Part shown: piece after piece, positions 11,731 to 32,838 of the stretch
Position numbering within the stretch: the first letter of the stretch is position 1
Layout of the letters: each line of letters begins with the position of its first letter
NCBI GenBank assembly: GCA_030437565.1
Contig: CP129291.1
Location: 310,001 to 374,000, forward strand
Length of the DNA: 64,000 nucleotides
Direction: 5' to 3'
DNA from: Terrilactibacillus sp. S3-3
GTDB taxonomy: Bacteria > Bacillota > Bacilli > Bacillales > Sporolactobacillaceae
Position numbers and translations under genes: made by a program
The notes under the pieces: generated by a model
What the model saw: the letters and a program-made list of their open reading frames with translations, nothing else
Told to the model about the DNA's origin: nothing
Databases searched by the model: none

Positions 11731-11932
11731 TGGGGGCTTTCTTCTATCCCCGCTGATTGTTAGTTGCGGCCCACAGGACGTGGGTCACACAGACGTTGCC
11801 ACAGGATGTGGCGCCTTTAGTCTGTGTTCCGAAGATCGGGCTTTTACGGGCAGTTGTCTCCCATCTATCCTTCTTCGAATTCATTGAGGCCTTGAGGCGG
11901 GAGTCTTTACTGCCCCCTTAAAGCGGGATAAA
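11731..11932 (+). ncRNA. Candidate structured RNA with two ACAGGA hairpin loops
   Basis: No gene occupies this stretch, yet it is dense with stems. Features in order: GGGG/CCCC hairpin at 11732-11751; CCCAC-AGGAC-GTGGG at 11770-11784; GCCAC-AGGAT-GTGGC at 11798-11812 nested inside CACAGAC/GTCTGTG (11788-11794 with 11820-11826); CCGA-AGA-TCGG at 11829-11839; and a long stem pairing GGGCAG (11848-11853) plus CTCCC with GGGAG and CTGCCC (11910-11915). The two loops match the CsrA/RsmA site consensus ACARGGAUGU. The strand is inferred from that match. I do not recognise a named family. Confidence 0.6.
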
Positions 11933-18549: not shown

Positions 18550-19982
18550 TCAACTCATGGCTTGCTCTTGTTTCGGCCATTCTCCGATGAATTCCTCTTC
18601 ATCATAGGCAAAGAAATCTTTAAGATTATCTTCTTGATCATCAAGGAAAAGCTGATCGGCAACTTCCGACACGAGTCTCGGCAGACCATATTTCATACCC
18701 GAAAGTGCTGCGGCGGTTAGGCCGCAGCTGAGAATAGCAGAATAGTTGAAGGCGAACAGCCCGTGCAGCAGTTCTTCCCCTTCTTTGTCGCGGCTTAAGA
18801 AACGATAGCCGGGAGAAAGGTAAGGATGCGCATCAAGCAGCGGGTTGGCCTTCTCCTCAGGGGCTTTGTAACGGTCACCCCAGCGGGCAATGTGGCTTTC
18901 AACAAGACGCAGTTCGGGGCGCAAATCCGGATTGGTGAGCAGACCGGTGGCGATAATCAAAAAGTCGAAAGTAGATGTCCCCTGAGGCGTCGTAACCGCG
19001 GCACCGCCGCCTGCGGCTTTCACATCCAGCCATGGCGCCTCCAAATGCAGATGAAAACCGGGCCGCGCGGATGCCCGCCCGAAAGTGTCGTTGGTCGGCG
19101 GCTGATTGAATTTAAAGAAATGGGACATCACTGCATATTTATCGGCGTCCGCAAGAGCATGGAAACGCTCGATCATGCCGGACACTTCCATCTGGCGAAT
19201 CGGATTGACGCGCGGCAGCTGCTTGCGGCGGACAAAAACATGAGCTTCAGCCGCACCGTTTGTCAAAGCGAAGTTGGCATTATCGAAGGCCGATGCGCCG
19301 CCGCCTAAAATACCAATTTTCTTGCCCTTAAGTGAATCAAAATCGATTATTTCTGAGGTGTGGGCATAGAGGGAATGAGGTAAATGATCGGCAATCATTT
19401 GCGGCACGTGCCATTCGCCGCCGCCCTGAATGCCGGTCGCGAGTACAACTTTTCGGGCCAGCAAAACATCCGATGGAGCTCCCGTCCCTTCGATATGAAG
19501 TTTGTAAATTCCCTCATCTGCCGGATCGATCAGTTTCAGCTTCACCTCGTTGATAACGGGTAAATGGAGCACGTTCCGATACCAGTGCAGATAGTCCATC
19601 CAATCTCCTCGTGGAATTTTATCCAGCGCCTCCCATCCTTCCGGCCCGAATTGTGCTTCCCACCATGAGCGGAAGGTTAGAGAAGGTATGCCGAGATCGA
19701 TCGGAGCCAAATGCTTGGGTGTCCGCAGGGTCATCATCCGGGCATAGGTGATCCATGGTCCCTCCAGTCCTTCACGGTTTTCATCAATGACGAGGATATT
19801 GGATATTCGCTGGCAGAGAAGACCGAAGGCAGTGCTCAACCCGCTTTGGCCGCCGCGACGACATCACAACATCATAAACATGCCCTTCCGGCGATTGCCT
19901 GCGGTGCACCCAGTCCGGACCGCCGAAGCCGAGATAGGAGAGATCGGTTTTTTACGCGTTCGTTTAAAGCCTCTAAGCTCAT
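18550..19982 (-). CDS. Flavin-containing NAD(P)-binding monooxygenase-like protein (frameshifted)
   Basis: This two-dinucleotide-fold protein is about 477 residues when joined. An N-terminal stretch (EALNERVKK ... YLGFGGPDWV) is followed by an FAD Rossmann segment broken near 19850. Next come GILGGGASAFDNANFAL (NADPH-binding GGG), the ATG motif LIIATGLLTNPDLRPEL, and a C-terminal FNYSAILSCGLTAAALSGMKYGLPRLV. It resembles the SidA/FMO-like group annotated as NAD(P)/FAD-binding oxidoreductases. Substrate is unknown. The preferred start at 19982 has AAAGGGATG upstream. GC content is higher than its neighbours. Confidence 0.7.
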
Positions 19983-26643: not shown

Positions 26644-27791
26644 TTATGATTTAGCACTTTTTTCTTTTTTGTCTCTTAGCCTCATATACAAAAGGCAGCT
26701 TATAATTACAACTAAAGGAATGATTATAGATGCGCCAATGAATGGATACGCTGCTAAGCATAGAATACAGGAGATAAAAGCAGCAATTTTACCAAAAACA
26801 TGTTTAATTAGCTTAACCCCAGCGGCGGTCCCTATAACATAGGTCGCAATGGCTAAAGAATTCGGCACAAATACTAGTTTGTCTAAACCAATATTAAAGA
26901 TATAGCTAACGGCTAAGCCCAATACTGAGAATATTCCAACGAATAATACCGAGCGTCGAGGAACTGAATTTCCATCTAAATAATCCAGCCATTTAGGTGC
27001 AACTTTGCTATGTGCTAATGAATAGCCCAAACGGCTGATGCCCGCAATAAGGCATTTTTTTGTTCCTAGGCAAATCGTAAATGCAACAATTCCTGTTACC
27101 CATGCACCATTTAGTCCTGCAACCTTTCTTACAACTTCAGCTAAAGAAGCATTATTTAGAGATTGCGAGGCGGAGGAGCTGCTCCCTGGACTATAAGAAT
27201 GAGTTCCAATAACGGCTAGTGCAATACCAATATATAAAATACCAATTACTACGATTGCACCCAAGGTTGATCCCATAATGTTCTTCTTTTTTGGATCTTT
27301 AAATTCAGGAGCCAAGCTGGATATAGCTTCCCACCCAAACATAGACCAAAAAATTAACATTGCGGATTGACCAATAGGTACGATGTTATTTTTATTAAGT
27401 TCAAGATTTATGTGGCCATACTGAATATGAGGCAAAGAAAGGACAATTGTGCCCAATAGAATTAAAAACGTTAAAGACGCAGTTATAAGTTGTACTTTCC
27501 CACTTGTTTTGATCCCATAATAATTTCCTATTGTTGCTATTAGAAGCACACAAGTGCAATAGCGTAAGCAGCAATTTTGGGCAAATGAAAAGCAAAGGAT
27601 ATGTAAACTCCGCCAGTGAGTGAAACAAGAATCTGCCCAAAGCTTCCTGCAATAAAAAACAGCCATCCTGATAAGGAACCTACATAGCGACCAAATGCCT
27701 CCTCGGCAAAAGTTGAAATACCTCCAGCGCTTGGGTAATCAATGGATAAAAAAGCAAAAGTACAAGCTAATGGTATACTCAGCAGAACCAT
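26644..27791 (-). CDS. APC-family amino-acid permease, N-terminus missing, frameshifted
   Basis: Ten or so TM helices remain of a usual twelve: MVLLSIPLACTFAFLS (normally the second helix), YPSAGGISTFAEEAFGRYVGSLSGWLFF (conserved APC loop), FWSMFGWEAISSLAPEFKDPKKKNIMGST, then C-terminal helices ending RLRDKKEKSAKS. One break lies near 27550. The first helix with its Gly-rich G(S/A)G motif is absent. The frame ends about 45 bp from the end of an IS256-family element, so the insertion or an associated deletion probably removed it. Likely an amino-acid importer or exporter linked to the operon on the other side of the IS. Confidence 0.8.
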
Positions 27792-27869: not shown

Positions 27870-29106
27870 TTATCCTGGATAAAGAGTTGTTACGTTACTC
27901 GAACGATCAGGTGATTTTGGCTGTTTGGCCCTCCATTCAAAATAGTCTTCCATTTTCAGATAGTGGCGTCCTTCTATCCATTTTTCGTCCTTCTCCATAA
28001 GAACAGAGCCCATCAGACGAATCACAGATTGGCGGTTAGGGAAAATACGGGATAACCCGTTCCCGACGGCGAAATTCCTCATTGAGCCGTTCCATCCCGT
28101 TAGTTGTCCGGAGGCGACGTCGATAGGGTTCTGGTAGAGGAAGCACCGCCGTCACGTCATCAAAGGCATCCTCCACAAGCTCCGTCACTTTTGGTGCTTT
28201 GTCCTGATAATCCTTTAGAAAAGCATTAAGCAAGGTTCGAGCGACTTCCAGATTCGGCGCATAGAGAATCGCCTTCACTTGTTCGGTTCCTTCGCTTTTG
28301 AGAGCTTTTGGCAACCGATCATGGACATTGCGCAGGAAGTGAGCCTGACACCGCTGCCAAGTAGCCCCTTGAAACGCTTTTTGAACCGCACTCACGAGAC
28401 CGCCGTGGTCATCGCTGATCACCATGTCAACGCCTTTTAGACCGCGTGATTTCAGCCAGTCAAAATAATTTTTCCAGGCGTCGGTGCTTTCGCTGTCATC
28501 GATTTTCAGACCTAGAATCGTTCGGTATCCTTTGTCGTTGATACCGTAGCTGATCAGCACGCCACAGGAGCGGACACGCCCGTTTTCTCGTACCTTCGTA
28601 TAAACCGCATCAACGAATAGGAACGGATAGTTGCCCCTCAAAGGACGGTTATTCCAGCCTTTAACCACTGGATCCAGCTGCCCGCAAAGATCCGATACAG
28701 TCGTTTTCGAAAAGTCTGTGCCACAAAGCTCTTCAGTAATTTGACTTACGCGACGTGTGGAGACGCCGTTAATAACCATCTCCATTAGGGATAGAACCAG
28801 CGCCTGCTCACTGCGCTGGTAACGCTTAAAGAGATCAGTAGAAAAATGGCCATTACGCAGGCGGGGAACATTGAGTGAAAGAGTACCCACGCGCGTCTTG
28901 AGTTGACGGGGATACGAGCCGTTACGGTAGTCCGTCCGTGCCTCACTGCGTTCGTACTTTTCGGCGCTCACCTGCTCGCCGGCCTGTGCTTTTAAAACTT
29001 GATTTAAAATCGTCTCCAAAAGGATATTCATGCCCGATTCTTTAGAATTACCAAGAAATAATTGATGCAAAAGTTGCTCATCTAGAGTAATCTGTAATTG
29101 AGTCAT
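27870..29106 (-). CDS. IS256-family transposase (one frameshift)
   Basis: This is a mutator-type DDE transposase of about 411 residues: the start MTQLQITLDEQLLHQLF, catalytic Asp in YPFLFVDAVYTKVREN, second Asp in VDMVISDDHGGLVSAVQ, the C-x-H motif WQRCQAHFLRNV, and the catalytic Glu in TNGMERLNEEFRRRERVI. A single extra base near 28040 splits off the last 70 residues (NRQSVIRLMGSVLMEKDEKW). The ribosome site and start are normal. It is otherwise complete and could be active if the break is an error. Confidence 0.93.
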
Positions 29107-29213: not shown

Positions 29214-29257
29214 CTGTTTTTCTGGAGGGGGCTGGCCAGCCCCCTCCAGAAAAACAG
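29214..29257. repeat. Perfect 44-bp palindrome upstream of transposase
   Basis: The segment equals its own reverse complement without a mismatch. The arms read CTGTTTTTCTGGAGGGGGCTGG and its complement, with the centre between 29235 and 29236. It lies inside the IS, about 110 bp before the transposase start. It would act as a strong hairpin in both directions. Confidence 0.9.
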
Positions 29258-29304: not shown

Positions 29305-29692
29305 ATTATACTGGCTCAACTAAATAGAGCAGGGTACTACTTAAAAAATGTCATGTAAAGTTCCACGATGAACGAAAAAAAAACTTTTTTTATCAAATGA
29401 ATTTCCATATTACTACAAAAATATTTCAAATTTACACGCCTAGGTAACCTTGATTACACCATTAGTATAAGTAAAGATTATGCTTCTTTATGATTAGAAA
29501 TAATCAATTATTGTTAGTTTTTAGCTTATTGCAAAGTACTTACATAGCATAGCTATTTTAATGTGTTGGCCGCTATTGATTATCCCGAAATATGTCAAAT
29601 ATGCACGCCAATTACACGTTTAAAACATAGCCAAGAGGTCGGGATAATGTTAAATTTGTTACTACAGCGATAATTAGAAAGGAGGAATATAC
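29305..29692 (+). promoter_or_regulatory. Leader of the cupin/MetRS-like operon with paired repeats
   Basis: There is no gene in these 388 AT-rich bases. Two 22-bp direct repeats (29419-29440 and 29588-29609; 19 of 22 identical, ending CACGCC) and a 10-bp inverted repeat (ATTATCCCGA at 29579-29588, TCGGGATAAT at 29639-29648) precede the operon. An AGAAAGGAGG ribosome site lies at 29677-29686. Confidence 0.6.
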
Positions 29693-30087
29693 ATATTTGT
29701 TAGACCACTTGATCGAGACGATTTAAAATTTGAATATGATCTCTATGCACAAAGAAACTTTCCGTGGAAAAAAACGTAGTTGATCCGCCATTCGGGGGGC
29801 GCGTGGTGTGTTTTAAATCCAGGACAAAAATCTCTTCCCCATGATCATGACGAAAAGGAAGTTTTTATGATTGTAAAAGGGGTTGGAAGAGCACAGAGCG
29901 GAAACGAGGAACGGGAAGTTAAAGTTGGCGATTTCGTTTATTTCCCACCCTTCACTGAACATAGTATTACAAATATTGGGGAAGAAAGCTTAGAATTTAT
30001 AAGCATCTGGTGGGATGGTCAGCCTTCTTTGAAAGAAACATCTTCTTCGAAACAGTTATTAATAGTGGGGGTGTTAAAAATGGATAA
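29693..30087 (+). CDS. Cupin-domain protein (frameshifted)
   Basis: A small single-cupin protein of about 130 residues. After FVRPLDRDDLKFEYDLYAQRNFPW, the cupin motif 1 reads LPHDHDEKEVFMIVKGVG and motif 2 is FPPFTEHSITNIG, giving a full His/His/Glu/His metal set. The frame shifts near 29778. The apparent start is ATA at 29693 behind AAAGGAGG, so the real start codon may be misread. One frame runs without stop into the MetRS-like gene (a fusion). An alternative frame stops at 30087, overlapping its start. I prefer two coupled genes. Confidence 0.7.
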
Positions 30088-31749
30088 GAAAAGATTCATT
30101 GTTACAGCTGCTCCTCCTACATCAAATGGAGACTTACATATTGGGCATTTAGCCGGACCATTTTTGGGAGCCGATGTTTTTTCTCGGATTCAGCGTATGC
30201 TAGGAAATGAGGTTCTTTATATTTCCTACGGAGATGATTACCAAGACTATGTTGACAGAAAAGAGGTAAAATAAAAAAAAAATCTCACAAGAAGTCGCTG
30301 ATTATTATACAGAGGCAATGAGAAAAACTTTAAAGTTGGCCAAAATGATTCCTGATTATTTTGAAGGCTCAAGCAAAATCGTTAGCCATAAAAAAAAAAT
30401 TATGAAGGAGATTTTGTAACGACCTTTATAAAAAAAGGAGATCTTGAACTTAAACAAGTCTCCACCTTTTATTGCCCTAAGTGTGAACGATATTCCTACG
30501 AGGCTTTTTCGCGTGGGGAATGCCAATATTGCGGTAGTTCATCTGACGCCAACAACTACTGTGAAAATTGCGGGCTTCCCCAAGAGTCTGGAAAGCTAGT
30601 TGATGCAAAATGCGTAACATGTGGAAATAGTATGGAGTTAAAAAAGGAGATAAGAATTTATTTTTCTTTAACAAAATACCACGACCTATTAAATCGTTAC
30701 ATTGAAGACAGAAATTGGCGAAGTGATGCTAAGGCATTGTGTCTGGAGATCCTTAATAACAAAATAGATGCCCCTGTAAGCAGAAGGGGGAAGCTAGGGG
30801 TAAAAATCCCACTCCAAAACTTGGAAGAGCACATTTTAGATACTTGGTATGGCGGACCTGCTGGTTATATCAGCGCGTCTATTGATTGGGCTTCTAAGTC
30901 GACTGATAAACATAAATGGAAAAGTTATTGGTTATCTAAGGAAACCAAATGGGTTGCTTTCGTGGGATTTGATTGCACTTTTTCCCATGGCATATTTTAT
31001 CCTGGAATGCTCATGGCACAAGCGAAGTATGTTTACCCGGATACCGTTGAACAAATAAATTCTACGGACTTGACGGGCAAAAGGTATCAACGAGCAGAAA
31101 CCATGCAATTTGGGGAGATGATATATTCAGTCTTATTGATCCAGACGTAGTGCGCTTATATCTATCCTCAACAGCACCGGAAAACAACGAAACCGATTTT
31201 AAGGTTAGTGATTTCAAACAGTTTGTTAACGATAAACTAGGAGATAAATGGAACAACTGGCTGGTTGGATTATTTGATATTTCATCGAGGTTTGGTAGCC
31301 TGCGAACACAGCCAATAAATGCGGCCATTTCAACTGAAAACTATCCGAACAAAATTAAGGGTTATTTAGAACAAATTGCTCATTGTTTCGATACAGAGGA
31401 ATTTTCACTTCAAAAAATAGCTCGATCTATTTTGGCTATTGCAAATGAGGGTATTCTCCATTTTAATTACATTACCCGGAATTTAAAAATTGATGCTGTT
31501 GAACTTGAGAAAAATCTAACTATCGTACGATTATTGGGTATTACCTCAAGTCCAATCATGCCAGGCTTTTCTGAAAAAATTAAAAATGTTTTTCAAGAGG
31601 ATGTAGAGATTGATCACAGCTATATTTGGGATGATATTTACAAGGAAGTTAAAGTCTCTCCCCAAAAGATCAACGCTTTTTTTTTTGATAAATATGATGA
31701 TATTACGTTTGAAAAGTTGATATCAGGCAAAAAGGCAACGATACAATGA
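30080..31749 (+). CDS. Methionyl-tRNA-synthetase-like class I protein (frameshifted)
   Basis: It is about 556 residues when joined. The N-terminus has RFIVTAAPPTSNGDLHIGHLAGPFLGADV with an exact HIGH motif. A zinc-ribbon-like insert follows (YCPKCERYSYEAFSRGECQYCG ... CENCG ... CVTCG). The KMSKS position reads KVSTS, in KVSTSRNHAIWGDD. The C-terminal helical domain keeps the anticodon-binding fold (NDKLGDKWNNWLVGLF). Breaks are near 30270, 30405 and 31085. It sits in an operon with a cupin and a binding protein and is AT-rich, unlike a housekeeping metG. I infer a specialised paralogue that activates an amino acid for a small-molecule pathway or gives resistance to a synthetase inhibitor. A duplicated MetRS is the alternative. 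Confidence 0.75.
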
Positions 31750-32838
31750 GTGGTAAACAACATTTGATCGGTGCAGCTGGTGCGCTTACCGGAAAAAGGA
31801 CTGCCCAAACCAAACAATTTTTTATTATGGAACAAAGTTGGCCATTGATGTTTGGAATGAAGATCATGTTCAAAAGGCAGATTTAATTTGGGCCGATGAT
31901 ATGGCTGATCAAGAAAAAGCGACATCAGCGGCTGAATATTTAATAAAACACAACGTAGAAGGAGTTGTTGGCCATTTTAGCAGTATATGTGCCTTAAATG
32001 CGGCCCCTATATATTTGGAAAAGAACATCCCTTTGATTTTGCCAGCTGCGACGACCAGCCCAGGGCTTACAAGCCTAAAAAATGTTTTTAGACTGTGCGC
32101 AATGGACAATCAGTCCGCTGTTTTAATCAGCGAAATAGCTTTAAGAAAAATTAAATCGCAGCGTATATTATTGGTGAATGATGGTAGCTATTACGGATTT
32201 CATCATGTCAAAGGTATATATGATGAAATTAAAAGGAGGGCCAATGAAGAGATCGAAATCCTTATTCAAAAGTGGAAAAAAAAAAAAGACCAGAATCTGA
32301 TTGAATGCATGCTCAATTTTAATCCGGATTTGGTAGTGTTTTCAGGAAGATGCCACGTAGCAATTGATTTTTCTAAAGGCACTCATGAGATATTTTCAAA
32401 AATACCTGTAATCTTTGGAGATGATGTGATTGTCAAAGAGTATTTAGATAATGTGAATTTTCCATTAGGGTGGATTTGGGCTGTAGGCCCGCCGCCACTA
32501 ACTGAATATTCTGGTGCACTGGATTTTATAGAAAAATACAAAATGAAATTGGTTTTGAGCCTGGCTTTTATGCTGCTTCAACATATGCATCAGTCCAAAT
32601 ATTATTGCAGGCTTTGGATATAGCCAAGCTGTTTAACCAAGATTTAATCAACGTTCTCTATGCCAATCATTTTACAACAATACTAGGAAAAATAGAGTTT
32701 TTGGATAGCGGAGAAATGTCTCATATACCAATTTCGCTGCTGAAATTAGAAAATAAGCAATTCAACTTCAAAGATGGTCACGGATTAAATAACAAACACA
32801 ACAGTCCGTGGCCATCTTCATGTACAAGGTACAATTAG
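31746..32838 (+). CDS. Leaderless type-1 periplasmic-binding-fold protein (frameshifted)
   Basis: It has about 362 residues with the Leu/Ile/Val-binding fold: GAAGALTGKRTAQTKQF, YGTKLAIDVWNEDH, VEGVVGHFSSICALNAAPIYLEKNIPLILPAATTSPGLT, RILLVNDGSYYGFHHVKGIYDEI, and EPGFYAASTYASVQ. Breaks lie near 31825 and 32535. No signal peptide or lipobox precedes the fold and the ATG overlaps the MetRS-like stop (ATGA), so the protein appears cytoplasmic. AmiC-type sensors of amides have this arrangement. It may sense the product or substrate of the operon. A degraded lipoprotein is less likely given the coupling. Confidence 0.75.

What the first reader, a model, noticed from the sequence alone, without database searches (positions are those of the whole stretch)
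29693..32838. Unusual operon: cupin, MetRS-like class I enzyme, and a cytoplasmic binding-fold sensor
The MetRS-like protein keeps HIGH, a Cys4-type insert and an anticodon-like domain, but has KVSTS in place of KMSKS, and it sits on a mobile, AT-rich segment. It is translationally coupled to a type-1 binding-fold protein without signal peptide and to a cupin (possibly fused to it); an amino-acid permease lies beyond the IS. Such a set could make an amino-acid-derived small molecule from an activated amino acid or tRNA, sense it, and export it, or could give resistance to a synthetase inhibitor. I know of no described system with this composition.
Basis: partly seen in the sequence, partly recalled or inferred. 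Interest (0 to 1): 0.75.

Follow-up and report, generated by a model that had tools for sequence, protein, structure and literature searches.

The report
Hydrazine-making enzyme with cytosolic binding-protein partner
The three 'genes' are really two: a known kind of two-part enzyme that joins two amino-acid nitrogens into a hydrazine, and a coupled protein that looks like a nutrient-binding receptor but has no export signal; this receptor-like partner recurs beside the same enzyme in about ten bacterial genera and I found no description of it.

Summary
Cupin and MetRS-like protein are one fused protein, cut up in this assembly by homopolymer frameshifts, followed through an ATGA overlap by a type-1 binding-fold protein without signal peptide. 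The fusion belongs to the hydrazine synthetase family (Spb40/PyrN/Tri28): same architecture, metal-ligand/glutamate motif, HIGH motif and zinc knuckle, and it groups with these enzymes away from housekeeping MetRS; metG lies elsewhere. So the core is described chemistry. What I could not find described is the partner: a cytosolic LivK/Atu2422-like protein occurs in 30 of 68 such loci (7 genera, all 23 Pseudomonas loci), in two Bacilli genomes and in the window, in none of 12 loci without cupin; these partners form a group apart from 28 mostly export-signal-bearing homologues (99/99 support). The amino-acid pocket is kept. Best reading: it holds an amino-acid-like substrate or the hydrazine intermediate inside the cell (inferred). 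This genome lacks the SidA-type N-hydroxylase, so the operon is either a remnant or uses another hydroxylamine. Interest moderate: known enzyme, apparently new conserved component.

The parts
29680..29685 (+). AGGAGG, putative ribosome-binding site of the fused gene
   Evidence: sequence
29693..30079 (+). cupin domain of the fused hydrazine-synthetase-like protein (reading frame changes twice near 29770-29815); HDHDEKE...H metal-ligand motif
   Evidence: Pfam PF07883 3.8e-16; alignments; motif
30080..31749 (+). MetRS-like adenylating domain of the same protein (frame pieces to ~30271, ~30273-30407, ~30392-31081, ~31084-31749); HIGH, paired zinc knuckles, KVSTS
   Evidence: PF09334, A1/A2 alignments, tree
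31746..32838 (+). cytosolic type-1 periplasmic-binding-fold protein (LivK/Atu2422-like, no signal peptide); start overlaps the previous stop (ATGA); two frame changes
   Evidence: PF13458, alignment A4, tree, overlap
28036..29106 (-). IS256-family transposase, upstream neighbour (not part of the operon)
   Evidence: NF033543 1.2e-107
26644..27791 (-). APC permease, YjeH-like (broken frame), divergent neighbour; link to the operon only suggestive
   Evidence: NF008245 1e-36; similar permeases in 5 of 84 loci

Best explanation
The locus encodes (1) a fused cupin-MetRS-like hydrazine synthetase: the MetRS-like domain adenylates an amino acid and passes it to the hydroxyl of an N-hydroxy-amino acid, and the cupin rearranges the unstable ester to an N-N bond; and (2) a dedicated cytosolic amino-acid-binding protein of the LivK fold, translationally coupled to the synthetase, belonging to a separate family found in many hydrazine-synthetase clusters. 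Shown here: family membership of the synthetase by architecture, key residues and tree; recurrence and separateness of the partner; absence of export signals in the partner; conservation of its amino-acid pocket. Taken from the literature: the chemistry of the family. Inferred: that the window protein is active when intact, and that the partner binds the substrate amino acid or the hydrazino-acid intermediate in the cytoplasm (buffering it or passing it to the FAD oxidase that is present in all 30 such scanned loci). In this genome the pathway looks incomplete.
For: Fused architecture, and intact fused relatives next to a lysine/ornithine N-monooxygenase and a DAO-type oxidase, as in the Spb pathway (PMC11705231). 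Metal-ligand/Glu motif H48-x-H50-xxx-E54...H88, same spacing as PyrN H50/H52/E56/H90 and matching RHS1 D63/H65/E69/H103; the RHS1 structure 5UQP is itself hit at 2e-7. MetRS tree: window + L087 100, in a 26-row set (98) of cupin-associated rows, apart from the housekeeping MetRS set. Partner: 30/68 loci with cupin, 0/12 without, all 30 also with N-monooxygenase and oxidase; start codons sit just before the first strand; the 24 partners are one side of a 99/99 branch against 28 homologues, most with visible export signals; best profile hits Atu2422 and LIV-binding proteins; AlphaFold pLDDT 91.6, TM 0.85 to alanine-bound Atu2422; pocket columns kept.
Against: No SidA-type N-monooxygenase anywhere in this genome (E 0.13 for the specific query, one weak unrelated PF13434 hit) and no DAO oxidase next to the operon. 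Streptomyces clusters lack the partner (0 of 16 loci), so it is not needed for N-N formation itself. Genes are frameshifted as assembled. No ligand was identified.
Confidence: 0.75

Rival explanations
1. In this genome the operon is a decaying fragment of a horizontally acquired hydrazine cluster, cut off from its N-hydroxylase and oxidase, and makes nothing.
For: No N-monooxygenase in the genome; scanned relatives with the partner all have N-monooxygenase and oxidase within 10 kb; low GC and adjacent IS256; rare in Bacillota (only 2 other genomes of 397 in the order sample and none in 398 of the phylum sample).
Against: Both coding regions are full length with catalytic residues kept and 43% identity to an intact relative; frame changes look like assembly errors shared by metG; the ATGA coupling is intact.
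Confidence: 0.45
2. The operon is functional but uses a hydroxylamine made by another enzyme or taken up, so that hydrazine synthesis works without a SidA-type N-hydroxylase.
For: Intact-looking catalytic motifs; 4 of 68 loci with cupin also show no N-monooxygenase in the stretch held.
Against: No candidate hydroxylase identified; the flavoprotein at 18550-19839 matches PF13434 only weakly.
Confidence: 0.25
3. The binding-fold protein is a sensor, like AmiC: it binds the product or precursor and controls expression.
For: Cytosolic, amino-acid pocket kept; an XRE/RNPP-type regulator sits upstream in L087.
Against: No AmiR/ANTAR partner seen; no regulator recurs among the loci read; the gene is placed among enzymes, beside oxidase or N-monooxygenase.
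Confidence: 0.25
4. An additional MetRS that gives resistance to a synthetase inhibitor.
For: Housekeeping metG exists elsewhere; paralogous MetRS resistance is known (general knowledge).
Against: Fused cupin; groups with hydrazine synthetases, not with MetRS; biosynthetic neighbours in relatives.
Confidence: 0.03
5. The binding-fold protein is an ordinary ABC-transporter binding protein that lost its signal peptide in this strain.
For: Same fold and 20-24% identity to LIV-type binding proteins.
Against: All linked members lack export signals and form one group; the genome has a separate LivK-type homologue that falls in the other group.
Confidence: 0.04

Closest known systems
Hydrazine synthetases Spb40, PyrN, Tri28 (fused cupin-MetRS) and RHS1 with its stand-alone MetRS-like partner
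   Same: Cupin + MetRS-like make-up, metal ligands and catalytic Glu, HIGH motif, zinc knuckle; relatives neighbour N-hydroxylase and DAO oxidase
   Different: Window locus lacks N-hydroxylase and oxidase; carries a binding-fold partner that I found in none of the actinobacterial clusters examined
por cluster of Pseudomonas orientalis (Por9, Por11)
   Same: Pseudomonas hydrazine-synthetase cluster; 23 of 23 Pseudomonas loci in my scan carry the binding-fold partner
   Different: I could not read the por gene list; presence of the partner there is inferred
Atu2422 (GABA/Pro/Ala-binding protein) and LivJ/LivK
   Same: Type-1 binding fold, amino-acid pocket including equivalents of F77, S79 and T102 by alignment
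   Different: Those are exported and serve ABC import; the hydrazine-linked proteins have no signal peptide and form their own group
AmiC (cytosolic amide sensor)
   Same: Cytosolic use of the same fold (general knowledge)
   Different: No ANTAR partner seen here; sits in a biosynthetic operon

Membership tests
Hydrazine synthetase (cupin/MetRS-like) | Cupin and MetRS-like domains fused or adjacent | tested here: met
Hydrazine synthetase (cupin/MetRS-like) | Metal ligands and invariant catalytic Glu of the cupin (PyrN H50/H52/E56/H90; RHS1 D63/H65/E69/H103) | tested here: met
   H48/H50/E54/H88 in the read-through protein
Hydrazine synthetase (cupin/MetRS-like) | ATP-site motifs of the MetRS-like domain (HIGH; lysine of the putative ATP-binding motif, PyrN K458) | tested here: inconclusive
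   HIGH and KVSTS present, the latter across a frame change; the match to PyrN K458 could not be aligned because the PyrN sequence was not held
Hydrazine synthetase (cupin/MetRS-like) | Groups with cupin-associated MetRS-like proteins and not with housekeeping MetRS | tested here: met
Hydrazine synthetase (cupin/MetRS-like) | Co-located N-hydroxylase (frequent in the family, not required by definition) | tested here: not met
   absent from window and genome; present in relatives
Hydrazine synthetase (cupin/MetRS-like) | ATP-dependent N-N bond formation | not testable with these tools
   needs an enzyme assay
Methionyl-tRNA synthetase | Curated MetRS models met at their cut-offs | tested here: not met
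   intact relative L087 scores 372.6 of 553, 257.8 of 336.35 and 291.9 of 587; window pieces far lower
Methionyl-tRNA synthetase | Charging of tRNA-Met | not testable with these tools
   needs an assay
LivJ/LivK-type ABC transporter binding protein | Export signal | tested here: not met
LivJ/LivK-type ABC transporter binding protein | Type-1 binding fold with amino-acid pocket | tested here: met
   (the model is of the relative L087)
LivJ/LivK-type ABC transporter binding protein | Adjacent ABC permease and ATPase of the same importer | tested here: not met
   no such genes adjoining in window or L087; the two ABC genes further down in L086 look like exporters

The most novel reading that the evidence does not exclude
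The cytosolic binding-fold protein is a dedicated, previously undescribed working part of a branch of hydrazine pathways: it captures the hydrazino acid (or the labile ester or the amino-acid substrate) and hands it to the oxidase or shields the cell from it, a new use of the amino-acid-receptor fold as an intracellular carrier of an intermediate.
Probability: 0.3. Interest if true: 0.7.

Novelty: new variant of a known kind. Interest (0 to 1): 0.5.

Why it matters
Nitrogen-nitrogen bonds occur in many bioactive natural products, and hydrazine synthetases are being developed as biocatalysts. A conserved partner without an obvious catalytic role, present in nearly half of the clusters scanned and in all the Pseudomonas ones, points to an unexamined step: how reactive hydrazine or ester intermediates are held or handed on in the cell. 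It also gives a sequence handle (cupin + MetRS-like + cytosolic LivK-like) for mining non-actinobacterial hydrazine clusters, and suggests a function for solved but uncharacterised cupins such as plu4264.

Tried and rejected
Housekeeping or auxiliary MetRS: rejected by tree and fusion. Phage or viral origin: no relative of either protein confirmed in viral contigs. Structured RNA (T-box and the like) upstream: nothing but an unrelated Bacillaceae-1 RNA at 11770-11836. Flavoprotein at 18550-19839 as the missing N-hydroxylase: only a weak partial match (28.7 bits against 296.5 for a true one). Promoter and terminator scan: no excess over shuffles. The first cupin motif pattern was too strict for Pseudomonas (HxQxxxE) and was redone. 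The KVSTS variant as a sign of novelty: KFSTS, KISTS and NLSTS are usual in this family. Literature on the partner: no open-access paper found that holds hydrazine, cupin, biosynthetic gene cluster and substrate-binding protein together; subscription papers were not searchable, so absence is not proof.

Full report
What is there. The window lies in a 3.6-Mb single-contig Bacillota genome rated 76% complete, in which many genes, including its own metG, are cut by frame changes. At 29693-32838 (+) the translations show a cupin, a MetRS-like protein and a LivK-like protein spread over all three frames. Cupin and MetRS join in one frame without a stop at ~30080, and the frame changes fall at homopolymer runs. 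Pfam and NCBIfam confirm the domains. The LivK-like protein begins at ATG 31746 inside the MetRS stop. GC is 37-40% against 43% in the window. Upstream are an IS256 transposase and, on the opposite strand, a YjeH-like permease.

Relatives. Searching the read-through protein in 299 genomes of the order gave housekeeping MetRS (26-31% identity) and two better hits, G024 and G068. There an intact 675-aa cupin-MetRS fusion follows a 440-aa N-monooxygenase and precedes a DAO oxidase. In the class, G428 has N-monooxygenase, fused synthetase (679 aa), LivK-like protein and oxidase in a row; G478 has cupin, MetRS, LivK-like protein, N-monooxygenase, class-III aminotransferase and oxidase in a row. G478 (L087) is the closest relative: 43% in the MetRS domain, 33-35% in the LivK-like protein.

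What the enzyme is. Fused or paired cupin + MetRS-like proteins are hydrazine synthetases: the MetRS-like domain condenses an amino acid with an N-hydroxy-amino acid using ATP, and the zinc cupin rearranges the ester to an N-N bond (PMC8664883; PMC11705231). The window protein has the motif HDHDEKE...H with the spacing of PyrN H50/H52/E56/H90 and RHS1 D63/H65/E69/H103; the solved RHS1 cupin (5UQP) is a direct hit, and the closest solved cupins are plu4264 (4mv2) and 4rd7. The Glu is found in 69 of 72 family cupins by pattern. In a tree of 66 MetRS-domain rows the window joins L087 (100) within a 26-row set (98) of cupin-associated rows; the housekeeping MetRS of the Bacilli fall in another set. 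Membership by sequence is met; activity is untested.

The partner. A genome-collection scan returned 80 loci. With profile searches in them, 68 have the cupin; of these 64 have the N-monooxygenase, 52 the oxidase and 30 the LivK-like protein; the 12 loci without cupin have none. The 30 cover seven genera: Pseudomonas (23 of 23), Burkholderia, Paraburkholderia, Rhizobium, Serratia, Pacificoceanicola and Cytobacillus; G428, G478 and the window add three more Bacilli genera. All 30 also have oxidase and N-monooxygenase. Streptomyces loci have none (0 of 16). Control loci around housekeeping MetRS (54 loci, 3-4.5 kb each) have no hit, though these are shorter. The usual Pseudomonas order is cupin, MetRS, oxidase, LivK-like, N-monooxygenase.

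These proteins start immediately before the first beta strand, whereas homologues elsewhere in the relatives and in the same genomes mostly show lipoprotein or signal sequences. In a 52-row maximum-likelihood tree the 24 linked proteins lie on one side of a branch (99/99) from 28 others; branches are long and the root is unknown, so a single origin is likely rather than proven. Their profile matches Atu2422, LivJ and LivK best. The AlphaFold model of the L087 protein (pLDDT 91.6) superposes on alanine-bound Atu2422 with TM 0.85. By alignment F75, S77, T100 and D223 of L087 correspond to F77, S79, T102 and an acidic residue near 226 of Atu2422, and A60, G73, H74, Y87, P97, R112, C114, G198, D223, D224 and F316 (L087 numbering) are invariant in 19 proteins including the window's. 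That these positions bind carboxylate and amine in LIV proteins is general knowledge; F77 bears on specificity, since the F77A mutant was solved with leucine (title of 3ipc).

How it works. Shown: family, recurrence, cytosolic make-up, kept pocket. Inferred: the partner binds an amino-acid-like ligand in the cytoplasm. Because it goes with the oxidase in all 30 scanned loci but is missing from Streptomyces clusters, I favour a carrier or buffer for the substrate or the hydrazine intermediate over a role in N-N formation itself (about one in three); a sensor is the main alternative (about one in four). The window genome lacks a SidA-type N-hydroxylase and has no oxidase beside the operon, so here the operon is either a remnant or depends on another hydroxylamine. 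Such synthetases are rare in Bacillota: two other genomes of 397 in the order sample and none in 398 of the phylum sample.

Limits. One scan of the genome collection, capped at 80 loci and biased to relatives of the query; Pseudomonas is over-represented. The literature search covers open-access papers only. The window proteins were read across frame changes for searches only; the structure model is of the intact relative.

Noticed in passing
window 29214-29257: Perfect 44-bp palindrome (22-nt arms, no spacer) between the IS256 transposase and the operon; single copy in the window. Could be a two-way terminator.
   Followed up: partly
whole window / G000: Many genes are broken by single-base homopolymer length changes; the assembly looks uncorrected (76% complete, metG with stops). 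ORF-based readings of this genome need care.
   Followed up: partly
PDB 4mv2/4q29 (plu4264) and 4rd7: Solved cupins with no function in their molecule names are the closest structures to the window cupin and may be hydrazine-synthetase cupins.
   Followed up: no
L142:12935-14230, L088, L089, L100, L150; window 26644-27791: YjeH-like APC permeases lie near hydrazine synthetases in 5 of 84 loci and in none of the shorter control loci; a possible transporter for the product or a precursor.
   Followed up: partly
L117, L145 (Pseudomonas): Clusters continue with an SbnA/SbnB-like region, an FAD/NAD(P)-binding protein and, in L117, a LysE-type exporter, hinting at a diaminopropionate-derived hydrazine product.
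   Followed up: no
window 18550-19839 (-): Intact flavoprotein oxidoreductase with only a weak N-hydroxylase match.
   Followed up: partly
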